DNA of 64,000 bases from IMG/VR virus record IMGVR_UViG_3300017987_000003, positions 1 through 64,000 of that record; one strand, 5' to 3'. Of this stretch, positions 3,483 through 45,225 are shown piece after piece (within the stretch, counting starts at the first letter, position 1; every line of letters begins with the position of its first letter). The DNA is from a virus. Position numbers and translations under genes: made by a program. A model generated the notes under the pieces. That model did no database searches. It saw nothing but the letters and a program-made list of their open reading frames with translations, and was not told where the DNA came from.

Positions 3483-3558
3483 GGGGTGTTCGCGTAGTCT
3501 GGACTATCGCACCTGACTGTCGATCAGGGTTTCACGGGTTCAAATCCCGTACACCTCG
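3483..3558 (+). tRNA. tRNA-Asp(GTC)
   Basis: 76 nt. Acceptor GGGGTGT/ACACCTC, anticodon stem CCTGA/TCAGG with loop CTGTCGA (anticodon GTC), T-arm ACGGGTTCAAATCCCGT. Discriminator G as expected for Asp. Confidence 0.93.
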
Positions 3559-3574
3559 CTGAGGAGAGACGAAC

Positions 3575-3670
3575 ATGGCAGCGGCAAGAACAATAGCCAC
3601 GACAAAGCGCCAACCCGCTGGCGGTAGGCAGGCCGAGCCTCGCCCAGTCGTGGAAGCGGGAAGGCCATAA
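3575..3670 (+). CDS. 31-aa basic peptide ORF between tRNAs
   Basis: ATG with GAGGAG 9 nt upstream, starting 16 nt after tRNA-Asp. The peptide begins MAAARTIATTKRQPAG and is rich in Ala, Arg and Pro. No similarity recognised. Supported only by the ribosome-binding site and position, so it may be spurious. Confidence 0.35.
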   Translation: MAAARTIATTKRQPAGGRQAEPRPVVEAGRP

Positions 3671-3674
3671 GACC

Positions 3675-3818
3675 ATGGGACGTCTGAAACAGATTGCAAA
3701 GAAAAAACGGGCGTCCCAGGGGCAAAAGCCACTGTGTTCGACTGCGATCTTTGACAATCTAAATTCCCCATTTCGAGATTCGGGGACGGCTCCTCAGCGG
3801 ACTCCTTCCTTTCAGTAA
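3675..3818 (+). CDS. 47-aa ORF between tRNAs
   Basis: ATG four bases after the stop of the 31-aa ORF, hence possibly coupled. The product begins MGRLKQIAKKKRASQG and is basic at the N-terminus with a Ser/Pro/Phe-rich C-terminus. No recognised family. Small tRNA-linked ORFs are common in large phages, but coding status here is uncertain. Confidence 0.35.
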   Translation: MGRLKQIAKKKRASQGQKPLCSTAIFDNLNSPFRDSGTAPQRTPSFQ

Positions 3819-3855
3819 TCAGCAGTAGAAAACCAGAGAAGTCGTCTCCGTCATT

Positions 3856-3927
3856 GGCCCGGTAGGCAAATGGTAAGCCGCCAGACTTTCAATCTGGAGA
3901 GTCCGAGTTCGAGCCTCGGTCGGGTCA
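3856..3927 (+). tRNA. tRNA-Glu(TTC)
   Basis: 72 nt. Acceptor GGCCCGG/TCGGGTC, anticodon stem CCAGA/TCTGG with loop CTTTCAA, T-arm CCGAG-TTCGAGC-CTCGG. Confidence 0.92.
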
Positions 3928-3930
3928 CAC

Positions 3931-4002
3931 GCCCCTGAAGCATAAAAAGCGATGTGTCGGCCTTCCAAGCCGAAGAACTCGGGGCAGTACCGAGTAGGGG
4001 CT
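3931..4002 (+). tRNA. tRNA-Gly(TCC), non-canonical D and T loops
   Basis: 72 nt and a full cloverleaf: acceptor GCCCCTG/TAGGGGC, D-stem GCAT/ATGT, anticodon stem TCGGC/GCCGA with loop CTTCCAA, T-stem CTCGG/CCGAG. However, the D-loop AAAAAGCG has no GG pair (G18G19) and the T-loop is GGCAGTA instead of TTCRANY, so the usual D-loop/T-loop elbow contacts are missing. All neighbours are normal in these positions. Similar losses are known from the staphylococcal non-proteogenic tRNA-Gly used for peptidoglycan cross-bridges. Whether this one is translated, non-proteogenic or decaying is open. Confidence 0.8.
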
Positions 4003-4007
4003 CTCAG

Positions 4008-4080
<73 letters not shown>

Positions 4081-4083
4081 CAT

Positions 4084-4164
4084 GGACCGATACCCTAGTG
4101 GTCAAAGGGAGAAGACTTTTAATCTTCTGCGAAAGCTTCCTGGGTTCGAATCCCAGTCGGTCCT
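4084..4164 (+). tRNA. tRNA-Lys(TTT) with enlarged variable loop
   Basis: 81 nt. Acceptor GGACCGA/TCGGTCC, anticodon stem GAAGA/TCTTC with loop CTTTTAA, T-arm CTGGG-TTCGAAT-CCCAG. The variable region is about 12 nt and contains a mini-hairpin GC-GAAA-GC, longer than the usual 5 nt of tRNA-Lys. Confidence 0.88.
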
Positions 4165-4168
4165 TTCA

Positions 4169-4239
4169 GCCTTCATAGCATAGTGGTAGTGCATCGGGTT
4201 GCCAATCCGAGAACGTCGGTTCGAATCCGTCTGAAGGCT
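4169..4239 (+). tRNA. tRNA-Gly(GCC)
   Basis: 71 nt. Acceptor GCCTTCA/TGAAGGC, anticodon stem TCGGG/TCCGA with loop TTGCCAA, normal T-loop TTCGAAT. One mismatch in the T-stem (GTCGG/CCGTC). Confidence 0.88.
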
Positions 4240-4241
4240 CA

Positions 4242-4315
4242 AGAGGCGTAGGCAAGCTGGATAAGCCACGAGGTTTTGATCCTCGGGATAGCGGGTTCAA
4301 ATCCCGTCGCCTCTT
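4242..4315 (+). tRNA. tRNA-Gln(TTG)
   Basis: 74 nt. Acceptor AGAGGCG/CGCCTCT, anticodon stem CGAGG/CCTCG with loop TTTTGAT, T-arm GCGGG-TTCAAAT-CCCGT. Confidence 0.9.
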
Positions 4316-4321
4316 CATTTT

Positions 4322-4394
4322 GGGGTTGTAGCTCAATTGGGAGAGCACCTGCCTTGCAAGCAGGAGGTCGTCGGTTCGATCCCGACCAGCTCCA
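4322..4394 (+). tRNA. tRNA-Ala(TGC)
   Basis: 73 nt. Acceptor GGGGTTG/CAGCTCC, anticodon stem CCTGC/GCAGG with loop CTTGCAA, discriminator A. Confidence 0.93.
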
Positions 4395-4399
4395 CGAGA

Positions 4400-4471
4400 T
4401 GATCCGTAGCTCAGAGGAAGAGCGCACCGCTCCGAACGGTGAGGTCACAGGTTCGAGCCCTGTCGGGTCAG
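4400..4471 (+). tRNA. tRNA-Arg(CCG)
   Basis: 72 nt. Acceptor TGATCCG/CGGGTCA, anticodon stem CACCG/CGGTG with loop CTCCGAA, T-arm ACAGG-TTCGAGC-CCTGT. Confidence 0.9.
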
Positions 4472-4475
4472 TCAT

Positions 4476-4547
4476 GCCTGGTTGGCTTAATGGATGAGCG
4501 CACGGCTACGGACCGTGTTTATGTGGGTTCGATTCCTACACCAGGTG
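4476..4547 (+). tRNA. tRNA-Arg(ACG)
   Basis: 72 nt. Acceptor GCCTGGT/ACCAGGT, anticodon stem CACGG/CCGTG with loop CTACGGA, T-loop TTCGATT. A34 would need deamination to inosine by host TadA. Confidence 0.9.
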
Positions 4548-4548
4548 C

Positions 4549-4620
4549 TGGGATGTAGCTCAACGGCAGAGTGCCTCCTCGACGCGGAGGAAGTTGCAGG
4601 TTCGATCCCTGTCGTCCCAA
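4549..4620 (+). tRNA. tRNA-Val(GAC), C33
   Basis: 72 nt. Acceptor TGGGATG/CGTCCCA, anticodon stem CCTCC/GGAGG with loop TCGACGC (anticodon GAC), T-arm GCAGG-TTCGATC-CCTGT. Position 33, nearly always T, reads C. Confidence 0.85.
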
Positions 4621-4621
4621 C

Positions 4622-4692
4622 TGGCTGGTAGTTCAACGGTAGAACGGGCTCCTTATAAGAGCTTGACGGAGGTTCAATTCCTCCCCGGCCAA
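4622..4692 (+). tRNA. tRNA-Ile(TAT)
   Basis: 71 nt. Acceptor TGGCTGG/CCGGCCA, anticodon stem GGCTC/GAGCT with loop CTTATAA, T-arm GGAGG-TTCAATT-CCTCC. Reads AUA codons. Confidence 0.88.
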
Positions 4693-4693
4693 C

Positions 4694-4765
4694 AGGGGCA
4701 TAATTCAACGGAAGAAATCTGGCCCTACAAGCCAGAAGTTGGGGGTTCAAATCCCTCTGCCCCTA
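4694..4765 (+). tRNA. tRNA-Val(TAC), C33
   Basis: 72 nt. Acceptor AGGGGCA/TGCCCCT, anticodon stem CTGGC/GCCAG with loop CCTACAA. Position 33 is C, as in the neighbouring tRNA-Val(GAC). Confidence 0.85.
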
Positions 4766-4776
4766 TCTGAACGATA

Positions 4777-4850
4777 TCCGAGAGTAGTCCAGTGGTAGGA
4801 CGCCTGATTTGGGATCAGGAGGTCGCAGGTTCGATCCCTGCCTCTCGGAC
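4777..4850 (+). tRNA. tRNA-Pro(TGG)
   Basis: 74 nt. Acceptor TCCGAGA/TCTCGGA, anticodon stem CCTGA/TCAGG with loop TTTGGGA, T-arm GCAGG-TTCGATC-CCTGC. Confidence 0.92.
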
Positions 4851-4853
4851 CAG

Positions 4854-4934
4854 CGGGGCGTAGCCGCGCCTGGTTTCTACCCAGGTAAGCGTAGCTAGGA
4901 GCTGGAAACGGGGGTTCGATTCCCTCCGCCTCGG
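4854..4934 (+). tRNA. tRNA-Arg(TCT)-like, D-arm nearly absent, long variable region
   Basis: 81 nt between a good acceptor (CGGGGCG/CGCCTCG) and T-arm (GGGGG-TTCGATT-CCCTC). The anticodon stem CCTGG/CCAGG with loop TTTCTAC gives TCT. Only six bases (GCCGCG) lie between position 9 and the anticodon stem, so no normal D-arm can form. About 25 nt separate the anticodon stem from the T-stem and could form a weak AGCT/AGCT hairpin. It is a tRNA-like gene with an aberrant core, possibly a pseudogene or a specialised RNA. Confidence 0.6.
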
Positions 4935-4938
4935 CCAT

Positions 4939-5010
4939 TGGCCTGTAGTTTAGTGGAAGAGCGCTGGTTTCCTACACCAGATGTCCTCGGTTCGAGTCCG
5001 AGCAGGCCAG
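4939..5010 (+). tRNA. tRNA-Arg(CCT)
   Basis: 72 nt. Acceptor TGGCCTG/CAGGCCA, anticodon stem CTGGT/ACCAG with loop TTCCTAC, T-arm CTCGG-TTCGAGT-CCGAG. Last gene of cluster 1; the 100 bp after it hold nothing I can identify. Confidence 0.9.
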
Positions 5011-5110
5011 CAGGAGCGCCTGTATGCCTCGTTGTTCCTGATGGGGTCACGCATACGCGCGCGAGGGTGCGCGGGCATGTGGAGGCCGTCTCGCTGTTGC
5101 TGGTTGCGCC

Positions 5111-5772: not shown

Positions 5773-6227
5773 TTGATTTCCTCTTTTATTTGGAGAGTGG
5801 GGCGCTCACCCTCCTCGTTGTAGGTCTTGTAGTCGGGGTGCGGGGTCCGCTCGTCGACTTTTCCGTCCTTGAGCCACTCGAAGATCGCCTTGGCGGCCTT
5901 GGCGGCTTCGTGGCGGTCGAAGCTCATCGTATTTTCGCAGGAGAGATCGGTCAGCCCGTCGGTGTGGCCTTCTTCGTCGCGGTAGCATATGATTCCGTCC
6001 CAAATTCGGTGCTCGGAGAAGAAGACCGTGCGGCCGAGCGGTTTCATCTTGACCAGCTCGATGATTTTGCCCTCGAAGCTAGTCCACTCGCGCAGATTGA
6101 CGACGTAGCCGTTCTCTCTGCCGTTATGGTAGGTTCGTGAGCATCCGTCGGCCTCAGCATCCTCGAAGAGCAGCTCCAGGCAGGCCAGGACGGTGTCGGC
6201 GAGTTTGTGTGCTTTTTCCAATGTCAT
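5769..6227 (-). CDS. Hypothetical protein
   Basis: 152 aa from the second of two adjacent ATGs, 5 nt after AGGAGG; the first ATG at 6230 is too close to the SD. Mixed alpha/beta, acidic, with a C-terminal helix (RHEAAKAAKAIFEWLKDGK). No domain recognised. Codon third positions are markedly GC-rich compared with the tail genes. It lies in the minus-strand early-type operon. Confidence 0.75.
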   Translation of the reverse strand: MTLEKAHKLADTVLACLELLFEDAEADGCSRTYHNGRENGYVVNLREWTSFEGKIIELVKMKPLGRTVFFSEHRIWDGIICYRDEEGHTDGLTDLSCENTMSFDRHEAAKAAKAIFEWLKDGKVDERTPHPDYKTYNEEGERPTLQIKEEIK

Positions 6228-6236
6228 CATATCCTC

Positions 6237-6743
6237 CTAAAGGGTGCTGTGGAACGTTTCTTCTGCGAGCCTGTGCTGGGCCTGCTTTCTGGCATCGTTC
6301 TCGGCCTTGCGGGCGACTTCCTCTTTGACTTGCTCGACGATGGGTTCGTAGTCTATCTGGCCGATATTGTAGTAGCTGAAAAGGTCGCTGAGATGGTCCT
6401 CCCAGTCCTCGGGGAGGGTCTCGATGGCCTCGCGGACGATAGCGAAGAGGTGGTCCTCCAACTCGATCTCGGCGTCGGCCTTGAGGCGCTGCATGCGATC
6501 GATCTCGATCTGAGTGTCGATGACCCGTCGGAGGTTGATGCTGGCCAGGCGGCTCCACCCTTGCATCTTGGGGGTGATCTGGTCGGCTTTGATCGTGTCG
6601 ATCATGAGGTCGGGATGGGCGGCGCGGAAAAACGTGCAGGCGTCATTCTCGTCCTCGGCCTCGATTGTCATCGTCTCGCTGAGGCTTGTTTCCTCGTCCT
6701 CGTAGGTCCCCGTGATCGTCCATGTGATTTGCTTGGCTATCAT
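6237..6743 (-). CDS. Hypothetical protein, first gene of minus-strand operon
   Basis: 168 aa starting MIAKQITWTITGTYED. This start is chosen because AAGGAG lies 7 nt upstream and because a small hairpin (TGGGC-AAGAT-GCCCA) sits just before the SD, as in other early genes of this genome; the longer frame from 6776 would run through that hairpin. N-terminal beta-rich part (TWTITGTYEDEETSLSETMTIEAEDENDA) and helical C-terminus. No recognised domain. Confidence 0.75.
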   Translation of the reverse strand: MIAKQITWTITGTYEDEETSLSETMTIEAEDENDACTFFRAAHPDLMIDTIKADQITPKMQGWSRLASINLRRVIDTQIEIDRMQRLKADAEIELEDHLFAIVREAIETLPEDWEDHLSDLFSYYNIGQIDYEPIVEQVKEEVARKAENDARKQAQHRLAEETFHSTL

Positions 6744-6757
6744 CGCGTTCTCCTTCT

Positions 6758-6772
6758 TGGGCATCTTGCCCA
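6758..6772 (-). promoter_or_regulatory. 5'-UTR hairpin with AAGAT loop
   Basis: Minus strand: TGGGC-AAGAT-GCCCA directly before the Shine-Dalgarno of the 6237-6743 gene. One of seven hairpins with an RNGAT pentaloop found next to SD sequences of early-type genes. Confidence 0.7.
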
Positions 6773-6788
6773 GCATCTTGCATCTCTA

Positions 6789-6817
6789 TTAATAAGGACT
6801 GTGGAGGCGTTTGTCAA
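6789..6817 (-). promoter_or_regulatory. Sigma70-type promoter (TTGACAAACG family)
   Basis: Minus strand: TTGACA (6812-6817), 17-nt spacer, TATTAA (6789-6794). Drives the four-gene operon 6743 to 5111. The sequence following the -35 (AACGCC) is shared with the other promoters of this family. Confidence 0.85.
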
Positions 6818-6876
6818 CGGTATACGGCGAGAAAAGAACAATTGCGAAAACCACAAGGATAACGGGCTCTTAAGGG

Positions 6877-8911
6877 TGAATGCGCTCTGCTCATTTGATT
6901 CTTTTACCTTTTTGGGCTGCATTCCATTCTTCTGTTTCTTATCGATTACCTTGGTTACGCTCTGCTTATGTAATTCTTTCACCTTTTGTGGCTACATTCA
7001 GCTGAGTTGTTTCTTTCATGGGCTGTGGTTGCATTCCCAATCCATGATTCTTTTCGACGGCATGATTTCGATCGAGTGCTCTGTTTCTTTTCGTTTCATT
7101 GCCTACGATCACCTAAGTTGTTTCTATCTGACAACATGGCTGCGCTCCGAAAACCTGTTTCTTTCCAATTTCATGGCTGCGTTCTTCATACCTGTTTCTT
7201 TTTGGACTCTTGGCTACACGCCTCTCTAGTGTTTCTTTCCGGTTGCGTGATTGCGATCCTATTCTATGTTTCTTTCCTACGAATTGTCTACGTTCGTTGA
7301 AGCTGCTTCCTTTACCCTCAATGGCTACATTCTGTGCTTATGTTTCTTGCCCTGAACGTGATTACGCTTCGGTCATGTGTTTCTCTCTGCCGTTGTGTCT
7401 ACGATTCCACTCAATGTTTCTTTTATTCTGAATGTCTGCGATCCGATAACATGTTTCTCTTTTCTTATATGGCTACGTTCCACAAGCCTGTTTCTTTCTA
7501 ATTCCTTGGCTGCGCTCTTCGGATATGTTTCTTTCTCTCCTTATGGCCGCGTTCAAATCGTATGTTTCTTTCATCAGTGCGGGCTACGATCTTTCAGACT
7601 GTTTCTTTTACTTGCTTTGTCTGCGATTGCTCAGTTTGTTTCTTTTCACCAAAGTGTCTACATTCTTCCTTCATGTTTCTTTCGGGCCAGGTGTTTGCGA
7701 TTTTGCCTGTTGTTTCTTTCGCTATTCGTGTCTGCGATCAACTGGCGTACTTCTTTCGAACTGCTTGTCTGCATTCTACTGTCATGTTTTCTTCGGTTCG
7801 TTTGATTGCGATTACTTCACATGTCTCTATCCTTCACTATGTCTGCATTTTCTTATTGTGTTTCTGTCTAACATCATGGTTGCGCTCAAATAGTATGTTT
7901 CTTTCGTCAACCTTGACTGCGATCCCTGAACTTGTTTCTTTTGCGGCGTCTGGCTACATTCCTCGAATTTGATTCTTTTCTACGCTTTGGTTGCGATTCA
8001 CCCCAGTGATTCTTTCTAGAGTTCTGCTTGCGTTTCTGCCTCTCACTTCTTTCCGTCATGATGGCTACGTTCCGTCTAGGTGGTTCTTTTTCCTAAGATG
8101 GCTGCATTCCATTCTCTGTTTCTGTCGATTTGGATGTTTTCATTCGTTCCGTATGCTTCATTCCGAGGGTCTGGTTGCTCTCTATGCTCATGTTTCTTTT
8201 CCACAGGATGGATTCGCTCGTTCTTCATGTTTCTTTCTATATCGATGGCTTATCATGGATTAGGGTTGCATTCGGATTTGATGTTTCTTTCCGTCTCCCT
8301 GGTTGCGATCATTGATCGTGTTTCTTTCCGATGGTGTGTCTTCATTCGGTTATGATGATTCATTCCGAAGGTCTGGTTGCGATCGGATGCTTTGTTTCTG
8401 TTCGCTGTTGTGCCTGCGATCTGGCTTGATGTTTCTCTTCTGTTCAATGTCTGCATTCCCTACCGTGTGTTTCTTTCATAGGATTTGGTTGCGATCCAAT
8501 ACAGTATTTCTTTCCTGTCCTTTGCCTGCGATTCCATCCCTTGGTTCTTTTCTACGAGATGTCTGCATTCTTGGAAGATGTTTCTTTTTGTTGGAATGTC
8601 TGCGATCAGGTGTTATGTTTCTTTCGCCGACCGTGTCTGCGTTCTACTCTGGTGATTCTCTACACCCTTTTGCCTGCGATCAGGTCCAGTGTTTCTTTCG
8701 CTCCATGTGTCTGCGTTCGAAAACGATGTTTCATTTCATCCTCATGTCTGCGATCAGCTTCCATGTTTCTTTTGCCAATGATATCTGCGATCCTTGAACT
8801 TGCTTCTTTCTATGGGCGTGTCTGCGATCTTCGACAGTGTTTCTTTCAACTACCCTGCCTGCGCTCCACTCATATGTTTCTTTCACACCTAATGGCTGTA
8901 CTATTCTATTG
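6877..8911 (-). repeat. TIGR-like array: 54 units of 37 nt, two conserved blocks and two 8-nt variable segments per unit
   Basis: On the plus strand each unit reads TGTTTCTTTC, 8 variable bases, TGKCTRCRWTC, 8 variable bases. On the minus strand (same strand as the Tas-like gene ending 20 nt upstream) the blocks are GAAAGAAACA and GAWYGYAGMCA. I count 54 units between 6896 and 8911, plus a degenerate half unit at about 6877-6895. Spacing is exact except four units (38, 36, 54 and 38 nt), and these account for the full length. About half of the first blocks are exactly TGTTTCTTTY. The variable 8-mers look unrelated to one another. Repeats of this size with two short spacers per unit do not fit CRISPR but fit the tandem interspaced guide RNA (TIGR) layout, whose processed guides are about 36 nt. 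The ORFs read through the array are by-products of periodicity. Confidence 0.9.
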
Positions 8912-8930
8912 TCAAAGATCTGGGTGCTGA

Positions 8931-10109
8931 CTATACCTCGCCGTACAGCTGCCGCAGGCTCTTGCCGTTGGAGTTGATGTAGGGAGGCTCGATGTAGTGG
9001 GTGTGATCTCCATCGCAGTGCTTTGTGAAGGCGAAGGGGACAGGGGGAGGCTCGCCGTAGTAGTCTCGGTAGGCCACATCGTGGAAGTGGCTGAGGAAGA
9101 TCTTCACCGCGTACCTGCGCGCGCGAGCGGTGAGATGGAGAGGCGGCAGCTTGCCCTTGCTGTAGTGCTTGTACGCGACCGTCTTCTCCCCTACAACCTT
9201 GGCCTGCTCTTCTGCGGCTTTGGCGAACAGTCCAGCCTCGTTTCGCTTCACTTCGCGCTGCTTCCGTTCGGCGAAAAGGTGGCCGTAGAAGTCCGCATCC
9301 CTGTTCTGGGTCATGATGAAGGAGCTACCTGCCTTGAAGCAGAGAACTTTCGCCCTGGCGTTCCAGGGGCGCATCTCCTTCTTCTTCCAGCTGATGTCGG
9401 GGTTGAGGCCAGCGTAGTTCCACCAGTGACCAGCGGTGCTCGGTCGGACCAGGACGCCTTGGCCCGCTCTGAGATCCCGAACCTTCACCTCGTGGATGAC
9501 CTTGCAGCTCTTGTCCTTCAGCTGCTCGGGCGGCGTGCCGTCGGGATCCTCCTTCTCGCCTTTGCCGCGTCGTCCAGTGCATCGGAATCGCAGGATACCA
9601 TCCTTCTGCGATCCGCCGATCGGTCGCATCATCCTGTTGCCCTTGCCGTGCTTCCGATCCTGGTCCTTGTCTGTGCAGTAGCAGGCGGTGAGGAAACGTT
9701 CGCGGATGTCGAACGTGGTGAGGAATGCAGCGGACAGGACATCGGCGATTCCGCAGATGCTCTGGAGCCATTCGCCGACGGCATATTCAGCTGCGAAGGT
9801 TCGCAGGGAGCTTTTGACATCGGTCTCGATCCTGTCGAAGTTTCCGTGTGTCCACCGCAGGAGAGCGGTTGGTTCCTGGACTTCCTCGCACCGATCGACC
9901 TGGTGTGCCGCGCGGATCCTCACCTGCTGGTACGCATAGTAGGTATCTACCAAGTACCGCGCTTCGAGGAGCCCCATCAGCTTGGCAGCTTCTTTCATGT
10001 CCTTGGACAATCGGTAGATGGGATCGGCGCTTGTGAACAGACTCCGTGCGTCGGAAGTCTTCGAACTGAGTTTCTTTTTCTTGGGCTGTTTCTTTTTTTT
10101 GTCAGCCAT
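8931..10109 (-). CDS. tasA: Tas-like protein (TasA type: Nop/IS110-like domain without nuclease)
   Basis: 392 aa, SD GGAGGAGG 5 nt before the ATG. Lys-rich N-terminus (residues 1-18), helical region with W86 and W114, then LQSICGIADVLSAAFLTTFDI (115-135), the helix-hairpin-helix-like motif of IS110-family transposases and Nop domains. After an insert rich in charged residues (145-210) come HWWNYAGLNPD (228-238), WNARAKVLCFKAGSSF (249-264), and a C-terminal ARARRYAVKIFLSHFHDVAY (329-347) with GEPPP and HYIEPP. These are the landmarks of Nop-domain proteins related to IS110 transposases. No RuvC (DEDD) or HNH motif is visible, so it would bind rather than cut by itself. It sits directly upstream of the tandem array on the same strand, with a 58-aa acidic ORF before it. 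Together this is best explained as a TIGR-Tas system. A degenerate IS110 transposase is the alternative, made unlikely by the array and the missing N-terminal catalytic domain. Confidence 0.85.
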   Translation of the reverse strand: MADKKKKQPKKKKLSSKTSDARSLFTSADPIYRLSKDMKEAAKLMGLLEARYLVDTYYAYQQVRIRAAHQVDRCEEVQEPTALLRWTHGNFDRIETDVKSSLRTFAAEYAVGEWLQSICGIADVLSAAFLTTFDIRERFLTACYCTDKDQDRKHGKGNRMMRPIGGSQKDGILRFRCTGRRGKGEKEDPDGTPPEQLKDKSCKVIHEVKVRDLRAGQGVLVRPSTAGHWWNYAGLNPDISWKKKEMRPWNARAKVLCFKAGSSFIMTQNRDADFYGHLFAERKQREVKRNEAGLFAKAAEEQAKVVGEKTVAYKHYSKGKLPPLHLTARARRYAVKIFLSHFHDVAYRDYYGEPPPVPFAFTKHCDGDHTHYIEPPYINSNGKSLRQLYGEV

Positions 10110-10155
10110 GTTTTCCTCCTCCGATCATCACGATCGGCATCTTGGGGTTTCTTTG

Positions 10156-10332
10156 TTATTCGGCCTCGCACAGCGGATCGAATATACAGCCAGGCTCAGA
10201 GATCCAGGGCTCTCCCTCTGTATCATCTTCGCTTTCTGTGGCGAGAATTTCTGCGATCTCGGGATCAGACAGATAGGGCTCCTCATACACATTTTGTGGA
10301 TCGTGAGGAAAGGTTTGTATTTGTGGTTCCAT
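10156..10332 (-). CDS. 58-aa acidic protein upstream of tasA
   Basis: Begins MEPQIQTFPHDPQNVYEEP; Glu/Asp/Pro-rich throughout, with a strong SD (GGAGGAAGAG) and a 5'-UTR hairpin. It is the first ORF of the tasA operon, ending 46 nt before tasA. No family recognised. Its position suggests an accessory or regulatory role for the Tas system, but the acidity alone does not prove this. Confidence 0.65.
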   Translation of the reverse strand: MEPQIQTFPHDPQNVYEEPYLSDPEIAEILATESEDDTEGEPWISEPGCIFDPLCEAE

Positions 10333-10382: not shown

Positions 10383-10411
10383 GTGTTAAAGGCTTTGGGA
10401 GCGTTTGTCAA
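10383..10411 (-). promoter_or_regulatory. Promoter of the tasA/TIGR operon (TTGACAAACG family)
   Basis: Minus strand: TTGACA (10406-10411), 17-nt spacer, TAACAC (10383-10388). Expected to transcribe the acidic ORF, tasA and, by read-through, the array. Confidence 0.8.
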
Positions 10412-20710: not shown

Positions 20711-26602
<5,892 letters not shown>

Positions 26603-43139: not shown

Positions 43140-43228
43140 GGGGGATTGGCTGAATTGGCAAAGCGGCGCCCTGGAACGGCGTAGCCTGCGTTTTTGATGC
43201 AGTCCAGGTTCGAATCCTGGATCCTCCG
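43140..43228 (+). tRNA. tRNA-Ser(GGA)
   Basis: 89 nt, class II. Acceptor GGGGGAT/ATCCTCC, anticodon stem GCGCC/GGCGT with loop CTGGAAC, long variable arm, T-arm CCAGG-TTCGAAT-CCTGG, discriminator G. Confidence 0.9.
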
Positions 43229-43230
43229 CA

Positions 43231-43246
43231 GCGAACTGGAGTTCGC
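43231..43246. repeat. 16-bp palindrome copy 6 (GCGAACTGGAGTTCGC)
   Basis: Centre GG instead of CC, i.e. the opposite orientation of the common form. Lies 2 nt after tRNA-Ser and 3 nt before an ATG. Confidence 0.9.
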
Positions 43247-43249
43247 GGG

Positions 43250-43489
43250 ATGACGAGAACGATGAAAAAGAAGAATGCCAGATACAAACAGTGCTTGATC
43301 GGTCGGGAGACCGCTCGGTGGACCGCGTGGATCCCCGAGGCGCTGGCACGTGTCGGCAAGGTGATTGTGCCGAAGGGTGAAGGGCCTGCGTTGGTTTTGG
43401 AGGCTTACAGGGGCATTGCGCTTCGTCACGATGAATTGATGGATTTCTCGGAGGAGTACAAACATCACCGAGGAAGGACGGATATTTAA
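43250..43489 (+). CDS. Hypothetical protein between tRNAs
   Basis: 79 aa (or 75 aa from MKKKNARYK at 43262). Sequence includes CLIGRETARWTAWIPEALARVGKVIVPKGEGPALVLEAYRGIALRHDEL, similar in style to small phage KOW/SH3-like proteins found next to tRNAs. The gene ends 2 bases before the next tRNA gene. SD weak (GCGGG). Confidence 0.6.
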   Translation: MTRTMKKKNARYKQCLIGRETARWTAWIPEALARVGKVIVPKGEGPALVLEAYRGIALRHDELMDFSEEYKHHRGRTDI

Positions 43490-43491
43490 AA

Positions 43492-43576
43492 TGAGGATTG
43501 ACAGAGTTGGAATTGTGCCCGCCTCGAAAGCGGTGGCCGTCGTAATGGCGCGGGGGTTCGAATCCCTCATCCTCAG
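43492..43576 (+). tRNA. tRNA-Ser(CGA)
   Basis: 85 nt, class II. Acceptor TGAGGAT/ATCCTCA, anticodon stem CCCGC/GCGGT-type with loop CTCGAAA, T-arm GGGGG-TTCGAAT-CCCTC, discriminator G. Confidence 0.88.
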
Positions 43577-43578
43577 CT

Positions 43579-43654
43579 GTGGCCGTAGCTCAAGTTTTGG
43601 TAGAGCGCGGGATTGTGGCTCCCGTGGTTGGGGATTCGAATTCCCTCGGTCACT
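43579..43654 (+). tRNA. tRNA-His(GTG), no encoded G-1/C73
   Basis: 76 nt. Acceptor GTGGCCG/CGGTCAC, anticodon stem CGGGA/TCCCG with loop TTGTGGC. The base before position 1 is T and the discriminator is T, so the G-1:C73 pair that marks bacterial tRNA-His is not encoded. Confidence 0.85.
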
Positions 43655-43659
43655 CAACA

Positions 43660-43749
43660 GGAGGACTGGCAGAATTGGCATTGCGTCGGTCTTGAAAACC
43701 GTGGCTGTCCGTAAGCGCGGGCATGTGGGTTCGAATCCCACGTCCTCCT
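43660..43749 (+). tRNA. tRNA-Ser(TGA)
   Basis: 90 nt, class II. Acceptor GGAGGAC/GTCCTCC, anticodon stem TCGGT/ACCGT with loop CTTGAAA, T-arm GTGGG-TTCGAAT-CCCAC. The discriminator reads T rather than G. Confidence 0.87.
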
Positions 43750-43753
43750 CTGA

Positions 43754-43828
43754 AGTCTCGGTGGCCGAGAGGCAAGGCATTCGGTTGCAACCCGAAATGG
43801 ACGTCGGTTCGACTCCGATCCGAGACTC
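43754..43828 (+). tRNA. tRNA-Cys(GCA)
   Basis: 75 nt. Acceptor AGTCTCG/CGAGACT, anticodon stem TTCGG/CCGAA with loop TTGCAAC, T-loop TTCGACT. Confidence 0.87.
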
Positions 43829-43830
43829 AA

Positions 43831-43915
43831 GGAAGACTGCGCGAACGGTAAGCGACCGCACTGCTAATGCGAGGTCATCTGAAAGGGTGTGGGGGTTCGA
43901 ATCCTCCGTCTTCCG
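43831..43915 (+). tRNA. tRNA-Ser(GCT)
   Basis: 85 nt, class II. Acceptor GGAAGAC/GTCTTCC, anticodon stem CGCA/TGCG with loop CTGCTAA, discriminator G. Confidence 0.88.
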
Positions 43916-43921
43916 CCGTAG

Positions 43922-43992
43922 GGGTGAGTGGTGTAATGGCAACACGCGTGGCCCCAGACCACGTTCTCAGGGTTCGAATCCTTGCTCACCTG
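43922..43992 (+). tRNA. tRNA-Trp(CCA), C33
   Basis: 71 nt. Acceptor GGGTGAG/CTCACCT, anticodon stem CGTGG/CCACG with loop CCCCAGA: anticodon CCA with C at position 33. T-arm CAGGG-TTCGAAT-CCTTG. Confidence 0.82.
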
Positions 43993-44061
43993 CCAGAAAA
44001 ATGATTTTGCGCTGCAAGATTCGGCTCTGGCGGGTGGTACAATGGTGGCAGGAGGTAAGAG

Positions 44062-44226
44062 ATGGAGTGGAAAAACATGACGGAAGAGGAGAAGTTGAAA
44101 TTGGCCGAGCAGACACAATCTGTATTGAAAACGATGACGAAAGAAGAAGAGGAGCGATTGAAGTCCTTGTTCAACATCGAGGAGGAAGATGCGCCCATGG
44201 TCCAACGGCAGAGGCATCAGATTTAA
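44062..44226 (+). CDS. 54-aa acidic helical ORF overlapping tRNA-Leu
   Basis: ATG 6 nt after AGGAGG. Sequence MEWKNMTEEEKLKLAEQTQS ... KTMTKEEEERLKSLFNIEEED is a typical small phage helical protein. The frame runs 36 nt into the tRNA-Leu(TAA) gene and its stop codon is the TAA anticodon itself, so the mRNA and tRNA sequences overlap. Confidence 0.55.
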   Translation: MEWKNMTEEEKLKLAEQTQSVLKTMTKEEEERLKSLFNIEEEDAPMVQRQRHQI

Positions 44227-44263
44227 GATCTGAGGGTTCCAGGTTCGAATCCTGGTGGGCGTA
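44191..44263 (+). tRNA. tRNA-Leu(TAA), short variable loop
   Basis: 73 nt. Acceptor GCGCCCA/TGGGCGT, anticodon stem TCAGA/TCTGA with loop TTTAAGA, variable loop only about 5 nt, T-arm CCAGG-TTCGAAT-CCTGG, discriminator A. Bacterial tRNA-Leu normally has a long variable arm. Confidence 0.85.
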
Positions 44264-44267
44264 CCGA

Positions 44268-44340
44268 GCGACTGTGGCCCAACGGCAGAGGCGTCGGTTT
44301 CAAGAACCGAAAGTTGGTGGTTCGAATCCACTCAGTCGTA
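44268..44340 (+). tRNA. tRNA-Leu(CAA), short variable loop
   Basis: 73 nt. Acceptor GCGACTG/CAGTCGT, anticodon stem TCGGT/ACCGA with loop TTCAAGA, class I variable loop, discriminator A. D-loop AACGGCAGAG as in the previous gene. Confidence 0.86.
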
Positions 44341-44345
44341 CTCAT

Positions 44346-44418
44346 GGGAGGGTACCCCAACGGCAGAGGGGTCCGGTTGAGGGCCGGTTCAGTGAGGGTT
44401 CGAATCCCTCCTCTCCCA
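44346..44418 (+). tRNA. tRNA-Leu(GAG), short variable loop
   Basis: 73 nt. Acceptor GGGAGGG/CTCTCCC, anticodon stem TCCGG/CCGGT (outer T-T mismatch) with loop TTGAGGG, class I, discriminator A. Confidence 0.82.
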
Positions 44419-44426
44419 CAAAATAT

Positions 44427-44497
44427 GGCTTCGTAGCTGAGGGGTTTAGCACTGGCCTGAAGAGCCGGAGACACTGGGTCGACTCCAGTCGAAGCCA
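44427..44497 (+). tRNA. tRNA-Phe(GAA)
   Basis: 71 nt. Acceptor GGCTTCG/CGAAGCC, anticodon stem CTGGC/GCCGG with loop CTGAAGA, discriminator A. Confidence 0.88.
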
Positions 44498-44499
44498 CC

Positions 44500-44580
44500 G
44501 AGATATCAATTTGTCACATTTTGATATCAAATTGATACATGCAATAGCATGCGATTATATGCTGGAGCATGTCGTTATAT
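44500..44580. repeat. Inverted repeat plus 20-bp tandem repeat between tRNAs
   Basis: GATATCAATTTG near 44501 pairs with CAAATTGATA near 44528. It is followed by two imperfect 20-bp direct repeats, AGCATGCGATTATATGC and AGCATGTCGTTATATGC (about 44547-44582). AT-rich compared with the surrounding tRNAs. May be an operator or a remnant of a recombination event. Confidence 0.6.
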
Positions 44581-44654
44581 GCCCGCGTAGGCCAATTGGC
44601 AGAGTCGTTCGGTTCAGGACCGAAATGTTGGTGGTTCGAGTCCACTCGCGGGTA
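44581..44654 (+). tRNA. tRNA-Leu(CAG), short variable loop
   Basis: 74 nt. Acceptor GCCCGCG/CGCGGGT, anticodon stem TTCGG/CCGAA with loop TTCAGGA, variable loop ATGTT, discriminator A followed by CCA. Confidence 0.86.
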
Positions 44655-44658
44655 CCAT

Positions 44659-44745
44659 GGGAAGTGATTTAAGGCAGGCTGGGCCTGCGATGGGCTGTAA
44701 CCCCGTTCCTCCACGAGGCGAGTGGTTCGATTCCACCGCTTCCCA
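44659..44745 (+). tRNA. tRNA-Tyr(GTA) with enlarged D-arm
   Basis: 87 nt, class II. Acceptor GGGAAGT/GCTTCCC, anticodon stem ATGGG/CCCGT with loop CTGTAAC, variable arm TCCTCCACGAGGCGA, T-loop TTCGATT. The D region is about 22 nt and holds a hairpin GCAGG-CTGGG-CCTGC. The outermost T-stem pair is A-C. Confidence 0.82.
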
Positions 44746-45225
44746 CTACATGAAGATCTTTTTGAGCGTAGCGCGTAGGATGCTCTTGTCGGTTCCTTTG
44801 TTGAGCGCCAGGGCGTCTGTGACCTGTTGCTCGATCGGTTCGTCTCCAAGGCAATAGTAGTTCTGGGTATCTCCCGTGGCAGGACTTGTGGCGAGTTCGA
44901 GAAGAAGGGCGAGATCCAGGATGTCAGACTCGATTTCGAATATTAGAGCTGCACGTGCTTCTTCTCTGGTTTGGTAGATGGAGAGATCATCGTAGTCGAA
45001 TCGGTATGGTACTTTTTCTTTGTTGATGGGGTCGTCGATTACGATTCCTTCTGCCGCGAGGTATGTTCCAACGGAGGGGATCTCTCTCTCTGTGACTTTG
45101 GTGACCTCTAGCGTCTGGATTGCTCCTTCTCCTGTGTTTGACTGCAAGTCGGTGGCGTAGGCTGTTATCCCAGGCTTCAGCCAGTCCATGTTTCTTTCTT
45201 CGTCAGCCGTGTGTCGTTTGATCAT
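44746..45225 (-). CDS. Hypothetical protein
   Basis: 159 aa, AAGGAG 6 nt before the ATG. First half beta-rich (WLKPGITAYATDLQS ... ATQTLEVTKVTEREIPSVGTYLAAEGIVIDD), followed by SIYQTREEARAALIFEIESDILDLALLLEL, a pattern often seen in small phage regulators that couple a barrel with a helical tail. Its stop codon is adjacent to tRNA-Tyr on the other strand. Last gene of the minus-strand helicase operon. Confidence 0.7.
   Translation of the reverse strand: MIKRHTADEERNMDWLKPGITAYATDLQSNTGEGAIQTLEVTKVTEREIPSVGTYLAAEGIVIDDPINKEKVPYRFDYDDLSIYQTREEARAALIFEIESDILDLALLLELATSPATGDTQNYYCLGDEPIEQQVTDALALNKGTDKSILRATLKKIFM

What the first reader, a model, noticed from the sequence alone, without database searches (positions are those of the whole stretch)
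6877..10332. Phage TIGR-Tas system: tandem array of dual short spacers next to a Nop/IS110-like protein
Seen: 54 units of 37 nt, each with two different conserved blocks (plus strand TGTTTCTTTC and TGKCTRCRWTC) separated by two 8-nt variable segments, about 108 variable 8-mers in total. A 392-aa protein with IS110/Nop-like motifs (GIADVLSAAFL, HWWNYAGL, KVLCFKAGSSF, ARARRYAVKIFL) ends 20 nt from the array on the same strand. Known: TIGR-Tas systems combine a Nop-domain Tas protein with arrays processed into about 36-nt guides carrying two short spacers. Inference: this is a TasA-type (nuclease-less) system in a large phage, with an unusually long array.
Basis: partly seen in the sequence, partly recalled or inferred. 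Interest (0 to 1): 0.97.

Follow-up and report, generated by a model that had tools for sequence, protein, structure and literature searches.

The report
Phage TIGR-TasA RNA-guided DNA-binding system
A large, uncharacterised phage carries a genuine, long TIGR-Tas locus: one nuclease-free RNA-binding protein plus about 53 tandem guides, each able to specify both strands of a short DNA target; it is a new member of a recently described family, and the matching changes between neighbouring repeats show what each guide RNA looks like.

Summary
On the minus strand, tasA (8931-10109) is followed by a tandem array (8903-6877) of about 53 clear 37-nt units: an 11-nt edge repeat (GAWYGYARMCA), an 8-nt spacer A, a 10-nt loop repeat (RAAAGAAACA) and an 8-nt spacer B. 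The 392-aa protein passes NCBI's curated TIGR-Tas model (131.7 bits, cut-off 100). It is about 40-45% identical to TasA proteins fetched here from other phage contigs, and its predicted fold matches TasR and TasH, then IS110. It has no nuclease domain, so it is TasA-type. New evidence: edge positions 8 and 4 covary between adjacent edges (50/51 paired) but not within one edge. The same holds across 1,596 edge pairs in 102 related arrays. Each guide therefore runs from mid-edge to mid-edge, closed by a short stem, and guides are kept functional as RNA. Unusual details are the 37-nt unit and an ~85-aa cysteine-containing insertion. The array is long but not a record: related arrays exceed 100 units. 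No target was found; exact spacer-pair matches occur at chance level. The likely role is RNA-guided DNA binding without cleavage.

The parts
8931..10109 (-). tasA: 392-aa solo Nop-domain Tas protein, no nuclease domain
   Evidence: NF052498.1 131.7 bits; PHROG 4285; AF2 core pLDDT >90; Foldseek best hits TasR/TasH
9447..9704 (-). ~85-aa insertion (residues ~136-221) with 4 Cys, between 'DI' and 'RPSTAGHWW'; predicted with low confidence; a sub-set of relatives carries shorter Cys-containing inserts at the same place
   Evidence: alignments; pLDDT <50 in most of it
6877..8903 (-). TIGR dual-repeat array, ~53 clear units of 37 nt: edge GAWYGYARMCA (11) - spacer A (8) - loop RAAAGAAACA (10) - spacer B (8)
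8893..8903 (-). 5'-terminal, diverged/truncated edge repeat (TAGTACAGCCA)
   Evidence: array starts of relatives
8862..8898 (-). first inferred mature guide (mid-edge to mid-edge, 37 nt), CAGCCA-TTAGGTGT-GAAAGAAACA-TATGAGTG-GAGCG, as example of the guide unit
   Evidence: covariation
8202..8268 (-). decayed stretch inside the array
8117..8201 (-). old internal segmental duplication of 8319-8403 (78% identity), sharing a rare edge form and one spacer A with a single change
   Evidence: self-matches; units
6877..6887 (-). 3'-terminal edge repeat (GAGCGCATTCA); array ends here
10156..10332 (-). 58-aa acidic ORF between the promoter-like site and tasA (MEPQIQTFPHDPQ...), start preceded by a GGAGG-type site; probable same transcript
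   Evidence: sequence, translation
10383..10411 (-). promoter-like site TTGACA-17-TAACAC, of the type found about 20 times in this phage; likely start of the tasA-array transcript
   Evidence: 5 exact TTGACAAACGC in window, 0.03 expected; genome list

Best explanation
This is a TIGR-TasA system of a ~195-kb (or larger) tailed phage. SHOWN from sequence: a solo Nop-domain Tas protein, an adjacent array of about 53 dual-spacer units, and compensatory changes between the 3' half of each edge repeat and the 5' half of the next. INFERRED from those plus the published family: a phage promoter at 10411 transcribes tasA and the array together; the precursor is cut in the middle of each edge repeat into 37-nt tigRNAs whose two ends are held by a short stem (edge 8:4, more loosely 9:3); a TasA dimer binds one tigRNA, one protomer holding the edge and the other the loop; spacers A and B (8 nt each) pair with opposite strands of a ~16-bp target (top strand 5'-A-rc(B)-3'). 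Having no nuclease, the complex stays bound and bends DNA, blocking transcription or replication or acting as an architectural clamp. Most likely role (inferred, about 0.45): silencing of competing mobile elements or phages in the same host; host or self gene control is the main alternative.
For: Family: NF052498.1 above curated cut-off; all 56 aligned relatives also match it; profile hits TasR 9mty 3e-26, TasH 1e-13, IS621 4e-6; Foldseek best hits TasR/TasH. Array. Guide unit: edge_i col 8 x edge_i+1 col 4 = 36 C-G, 13 T-A, 1 G-U, 1 mismatch (50/51 paired, 40.8 expected), no signal within one edge (39 versus 40.6) or to the next-but-one edge; the count of structure pairs 78.6% of cells paired versus 58.0+-3.4 shuffled and at most 51% when slid, 0/500 shuffles; 102 related 36-nt arrays, 1,596 edge pairs: 1,533 versus 1,437+-5.5 and 1,543 versus 1,442+-4.7 in within-array shuffles. 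Edge assignment: several relatives' arrays end with a truncated edge, GARCG. Geometry, tigRNA cutting and dimer: PMC12045711.
Against: No small-RNA data. No target for any spacer pair: the phage's own 195 kb has no 0- or 1-mismatch site in the known geometry, and 2,113 pairs against 1.89 Mb of related loci give exact matches only at chance. No intrinsic terminator was found after the array. The second stem pair (9:3) is often A-C (13 of 51), so the closing stem may be a single strong pair. Part of the covariation could be shared ancestry of a few founder units rather than repeated selection.
Confidence: 0.9

Rival explanations
1. Same RNP, but aimed at host or the phage's own genes: a guide library that represses host transcription units or times phage genes, rather than rival elements.
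For: Nuclease-free effector, and the promoter type is shared with many other genes of this phage. One exact 16/16 match to the phage's own DUF932-type gene (genome 82934) exists.
Against: That match uses two spacers that flank an edge, not a loop, so they would sit on two different guides; about 0.05 expected over the geometries tried. Correctly paired spacers show no excess of own-genome matches.
Confidence: 0.25
2. TasA bends DNA to assist recombination or integration (an RNA-guided architectural factor), as suggested by Faure et al. for TasA.
For: The ~180-degree DNA bend in TasR and relatedness to IS110 recombinases (PMC12045711).
Against: About 53 different guides are more than a site-specific integration aid needs; no recombination partner was identified next to tasA; neighbouring genes are not conserved in relatives.
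Confidence: 0.1
3. A decaying, non-functional remnant of a TIGR locus.
For: One decayed stretch (8202-8268) and variable repeats compared with most relatives.
Against: Intact 392-aa ORF; 49 of 51 closing pairs at 4:8 are Watson-Crick and a 50th is G-U; two contigs carry the same intact locus.
Confidence: 0.05
4. An IS110-type transposase with its own repeats, or a CRISPR-like array.
For: PHROG 4285 is labelled 'transposase'; 38 of the 56 relatives also weakly match the IS110 model.
Against: No RuvC/DEDD domain; dual 10/11-nt repeats with 8-nt spacers, no 25-36-nt repeat; our protein matches only the TIGR-Tas model.
Confidence: 0.01

Closest known systems
TIGR-TasA, dual-repeat type (Faure et al. 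2025, PMC12045711; e.g. Flavonifractor plautii FpTIGR)
   Same: Solo Nop-domain protein next to an array of two alternating short repeats and two short spacers; edge/loop logic; phage setting
   Different: 37-nt unit with an 11-nt edge and 8-nt spacers (FpTIGR: 36-nt guide, 9-nt spacers); ~53 units against the usual 5-15; ~85-aa insertion in TasA
TIGR-TasH (Salicola phage CGphi29; TasH entries PDB 21kl, 9vzx, 9w02-9w04)
   Same: Phage-borne, 16 nt of spacer in total, same fold
   Different: No HNH domain here, hence no cleavage expected
TIGR-TasR (PDB 9mty)
   Same: Best fold and profile match; closing pair between edge halves
   Different: No RuvC; repeats GA...CA instead of UG...CCA; 8- instead of 9-nt spacers
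IMG/VR relative L190 (IMGVR_UViG_3300009285_000883)
   Same: Sister TasA in the tree (support 98/97), 37-nt units with GANCGCAGNCA edges on both sides of tas
   Different: 310-aa TasA without the insertion; two shorter arrays
IMG/VR relative L100 (IMGVR_UViG_3300027821_000007)
   Same: 37-nt unit, edge GAGCGCAGCCG; Cys-containing insert in TasA
   Different: ~103 units; not sister in the tree, so the 37-nt form probably arose more than once
IS110 / IS621 / ISCro4 bridge-RNA recombinases
   Same: Distant fold and sequence similarity of the RNA-binding part
   Different: No catalytic domains, no bridge-RNA/transposon anatomy

Membership tests
TIGR-Tas | Nop-domain Tas protein | tested here: met
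   NF052498.1 131.7 bits > 100; TasR/TasH profile and fold matches
TIGR-Tas | Adjacent array of two alternating 8-12-nt repeats with two short spacers | tested here: met
   11/10-nt repeats, 8/8-nt spacers, ~53 units, 27 nt from the tas stop codon
TIGR-Tas | Array begins with a 5'-truncated edge and ends with a 3'-truncated edge followed by a terminator | tested here: inconclusive
   Diverged edge at 8903 and edge end at 6877 fit; no terminator-like site found on the minus strand
TIGR-Tas | Box C/box D motifs shared by edge and loop | tested here: met
   Both repeats start GA and end CA, as in relatives
TIGR-Tas | Edge halves of one guide pair (covariation) | tested here: met
   50/51 at 4:8 across adjacent edges, none within an edge; 102 relatives
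TIGR-Tas | ~36-nt processed tigRNAs bound to Tas | not testable with these tools
   needs small-RNA sequencing
TIGR-Tas | Tandem spacer targeting of opposite DNA strands | tested here: inconclusive
   no target found; matches at chance
TasA subtype | No RuvC or HNH nuclease domain | tested here: met
   no Pfam domain; only ~30 aa before the coiled-coil
IS110 transposase | N-terminal DEDD/RuvC and C-terminal Tnp catalytic domains | tested here: not met
   no Pfam match; 392 aa accounted for by Nop core plus insertion
CRISPR-Cas | single 25-36-nt repeat, cas genes | tested here: not met
   array anatomy; PADLOC no hit for the effector; neighbouring genes not scanned for cas

The most novel reading that the evidence does not exclude
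Phage TasA loci are inherited, slowly drifting libraries of 50-100+ nuclease-free guides. Each guide is maintained as a mid-edge-to-mid-edge RNA module with its own closing stem, and arrays change by internal gain and loss of units and point mutation rather than end-polarised spacer capture. This phage carries a variant with 37-nt guides and an added Cys-containing (possibly zinc-binding) TasA domain that may give the complex a new effector or contact function.
Probability: 0.35. Interest if true: 0.75.

Novelty: new member of a known kind. Interest (0 to 1): 0.55.

Why it matters
TIGR-Tas was described in 2025; the role of nuclease-free TasA and the way arrays grow are listed as open by its discoverers. 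This locus has variable repeats, which makes it a natural experiment: the covariation identifies guide ends without RNA-seq. The related loci collected here (122 arrays parsed, several sets of close relatives with different arrays) make array evolution and target hunting directly testable. The extra TasA domain and 37-nt guides are concrete handles for comparing TasA variants.

Tried and rejected
(1) Exact own-genome match of spacers ACAGGCAA/CCTGGCCC at 82934: first looked like a self-target in the known geometry, but it was found while edge and loop were still swapped. With the correct pairing the two spacers belong to neighbouring guides; treated as chance. (2) Target search of all pairs in related phage loci: chance level. 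(3) A transition bias in spacer changes as a sign of G-U tolerance: ts/tv in spacers (91/55) is like the background of the same contigs, dropped. (4) tblastn against the phage and plasmid collections found no relatives; relatives came only from IMG/VR and GTDB contigs. (5) Conserved neighbour genes around tas: none convincing. (6) Rfam: no match.

Full report
1. What is there. On the minus strand, an intact 392-aa ORF (8931-10109) is followed 27 nt past its stop codon by a tandem array running from 8903 to 6877. A two-block profile chain gives 53 clear units plus a decayed stretch at about 8202-8268. Almost all units are exactly 37 nt: an 11-nt repeat GAWYGYARMCA, 8 variable nt, a 10-nt repeat RAAAGAAACA, 8 variable nt. 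The 37-nt phasing is far beyond chance (45 loop pairs at +37 versus at most 3 in 300 Markov resamples). A second IMG/VR contig carries the same locus at 99.98% identity.

2. The protein. NCBIfam's curated TIGR_Tas_endo model (NF052498.1) scores 131.7 bits against a cut-off of 100; PHROG 4285, labelled 'transposase', matches at 9e-24; Pfam and PADLOC give nothing. A DNA pattern for the WRYAGLGV motif, then alignment-based scans, brought in TasA relatives from viral contigs (292 and 445 relatives in two overlapping scans, 80 kept each) and 13 from bacterial or archaeal contigs. Ours is about 40-45% identical to most of them, and all 56 aligned members match the TIGR-Tas model. The family profile hits TasR (9mty, 3e-26), TasH (1e-13) and IS621 (4e-6) among solved structures. 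AlphaFold2 gives a confident core (221 residues at pLDDT 90 or more) and Foldseek's only credible matches are TasR and TasH, then IS110 recombinases. No nuclease domain fits: about 30 residues precede the coiled-coil. It is a TasA.

3. Edge and loop. In several relatives' arrays the repeat found truncated at the 3' end is the CGAG-type repeat (GARCG...), which by the published description is the edge repeat (PMC12045711). The A-rich repeat is the loop. So here GAWYGYARMCA is the edge and RAAAGAAACA the loop, and a guide is [edge 3' half]-A-loop-B-[next edge 5' half].

4. Covariation between neighbouring edges. Repeats vary from unit to unit in this array. Edge position 8 and position 4 of the NEXT edge form 36 C-G, 13 T-A, 1 G-U and 1 mismatch (50 of 51 paired; 40.8 expected). 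The same two positions within one edge show nothing (39 versus 40.6), nor does the edge after next. Positions 9 and 3 pair in 29 of 51 (16.9 expected). On the 49-unit alignment the two-pair helix has 78.6% paired cells versus 58.0+-3.4 in shuffles and at most 51% when slid. The effect is general: in 102 related 36-nt arrays with 1,596 edge pairs, positions 3:8 pair 1,533 times (1,437+-5.5 in within-array shuffles) and 4:7 1,543 times (1,442+-4.7); double changes are 129/263 and 134/241 across edges against 36/388 and 38/372 within an edge. Faure et al. reported covariation of edge consensus sequences between arrays and placed the pairs between the two edges of one tigRNA in a structure; the unit-by-unit signal was not mentioned in the text read here. 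It shows that the RNA unit runs from mid-edge to mid-edge and that guides are kept as RNA. Shared ancestry of founder units may contribute.

5. What is unusual. (a) The unit is 37 nt because the edge has one extra base (GAACG-C-AG..CA); of 122 arrays parsed, 115 are 36 nt, and the C-inserted 11-nt edge was seen only in L100 and, by a later pattern search, in L190. L190's TasA is sister to ours (98/97) while L100 sits elsewhere, so the form probably arose twice (the bootstrap had not fully settled). (b) An insertion of ~85 residues with four Cys lies between the coiled-coil part and the W-x-Y-A-G motif; other TasA proteins carry shorter Cys-containing inserts at the same point, some with CxxC...C...C. 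Metal binding is a guess, and its model is low-confidence. (c) ~53 units is long against the published 5-15, but here the median was 18 and four arrays exceed 100.

6. Array evolution. An internal duplication (8319-8403 and 8117-8201, 78%) shows growth by segmental copying. Between related phages, arrays are collinear with whole units missing or replaced throughout, not at one end, and homologous spacers differ by 1-6%, at or below the flanking DNA's divergence (the unit aligner favours similar units, so this is a lower bound). This does not look like CRISPR-type end-polarised capture.

7. Targets. The published 8-nt 3' overhang implies a target reading 5'-A-rc(B)-3'. No correctly paired spacers match the phage's own 195 kb with 0 or 1 mismatch in that geometry. 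An exact 16/16 match to a DUF932-type gene at genome 82934 uses spacers flanking an edge, hence two different guides, and is probably chance. Across 2,113 pairs and 1.89 Mb of related loci, exact matches equal controls. Host and targets remain unknown.

8. Setting. The record is a 194,905-bp virus contig with 28 tRNA genes in the window, a head protein distantly related to T4-like/huge-phage major capsid proteins and a terminase of low identity to known phages. A promoter-like motif (TTGACAAAC, 17-nt spacing) occurs about 20 times; one copy lies upstream of a 58-aa acidic ORF and tasA, another just beyond the array.

9. Verdict. A bona fide TIGR-TasA locus; new member of a known kind with two modest structural novelties. 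RNA-guided, nuclease-free DNA binding is the likely biochemistry; interference with other mobile elements is the likeliest but unproven role.

Noticed in passing
L100 (array 6003-9834), L123, L126, L131: TIGR arrays of more than 100 units next to TasA genes in viral contigs, much longer than the 5-15 usually reported.
   Followed up: partly
L098-L103, L112-L114, L118, L121, L129, L159, L171, L176: A Cys-containing insert (some CxxC...C...C) in TasA between the coiled-coil part and the WxYAG motif, scattered over the tree: possible zinc-binding knob.
   Followed up: partly
L078/L083/L088/L089/L094; L073/L084/L085/L087; L037/L046; L048/L050: Close relatives with collinear arrays differing by internal unit gain/loss and point changes in spacers; good material for studying TIGR array evolution.
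   Followed up: partly
genome 82934 (L004:18934-18949): Exact 16-bp match, in A-rc(B) order, of two spacers that flank one edge repeat (ACAGGCAA / CCTGGCCC), inside a DUF932-type gene; probably chance.
   Followed up: yes
window 10156-10332 (-): 58-aa very acidic ORF between the promoter-like site and tasA; could be an accessory or antagonist of TasA.
   Followed up: no
whole genome; window 6789-6817, 10383-10411: Phage-wide promoter-like motif TTGACAAAC with a -10-like box at 17 nt, about 20 copies.
   Followed up: partly
window 3483-5011 and 43140-44746: Two dense tRNA clusters, 28 tRNA genes in 64 kb.
   Followed up: no
L008:4520-7213 (portal, 897 aa); L005:4678-7551 (helicase, 957 aa): HNH-endonuclease match inside the portal gene and a split helicase match, suggesting inteins.
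   Followed up: no
window 25943-26575; L008:16758-19355; L009 several: Collagen-like G-x-T/P-G repeat proteins in the structural region.
   Followed up: no
L176-L188: Relatives of this TasA on contigs assigned to bacteria (Acidobacteriota, Halomonas, Propionivibrio, Eubacterium and others) and one Woesearchaeota archaeon, probably in prophages or misbinned viruses.
   Followed up: no
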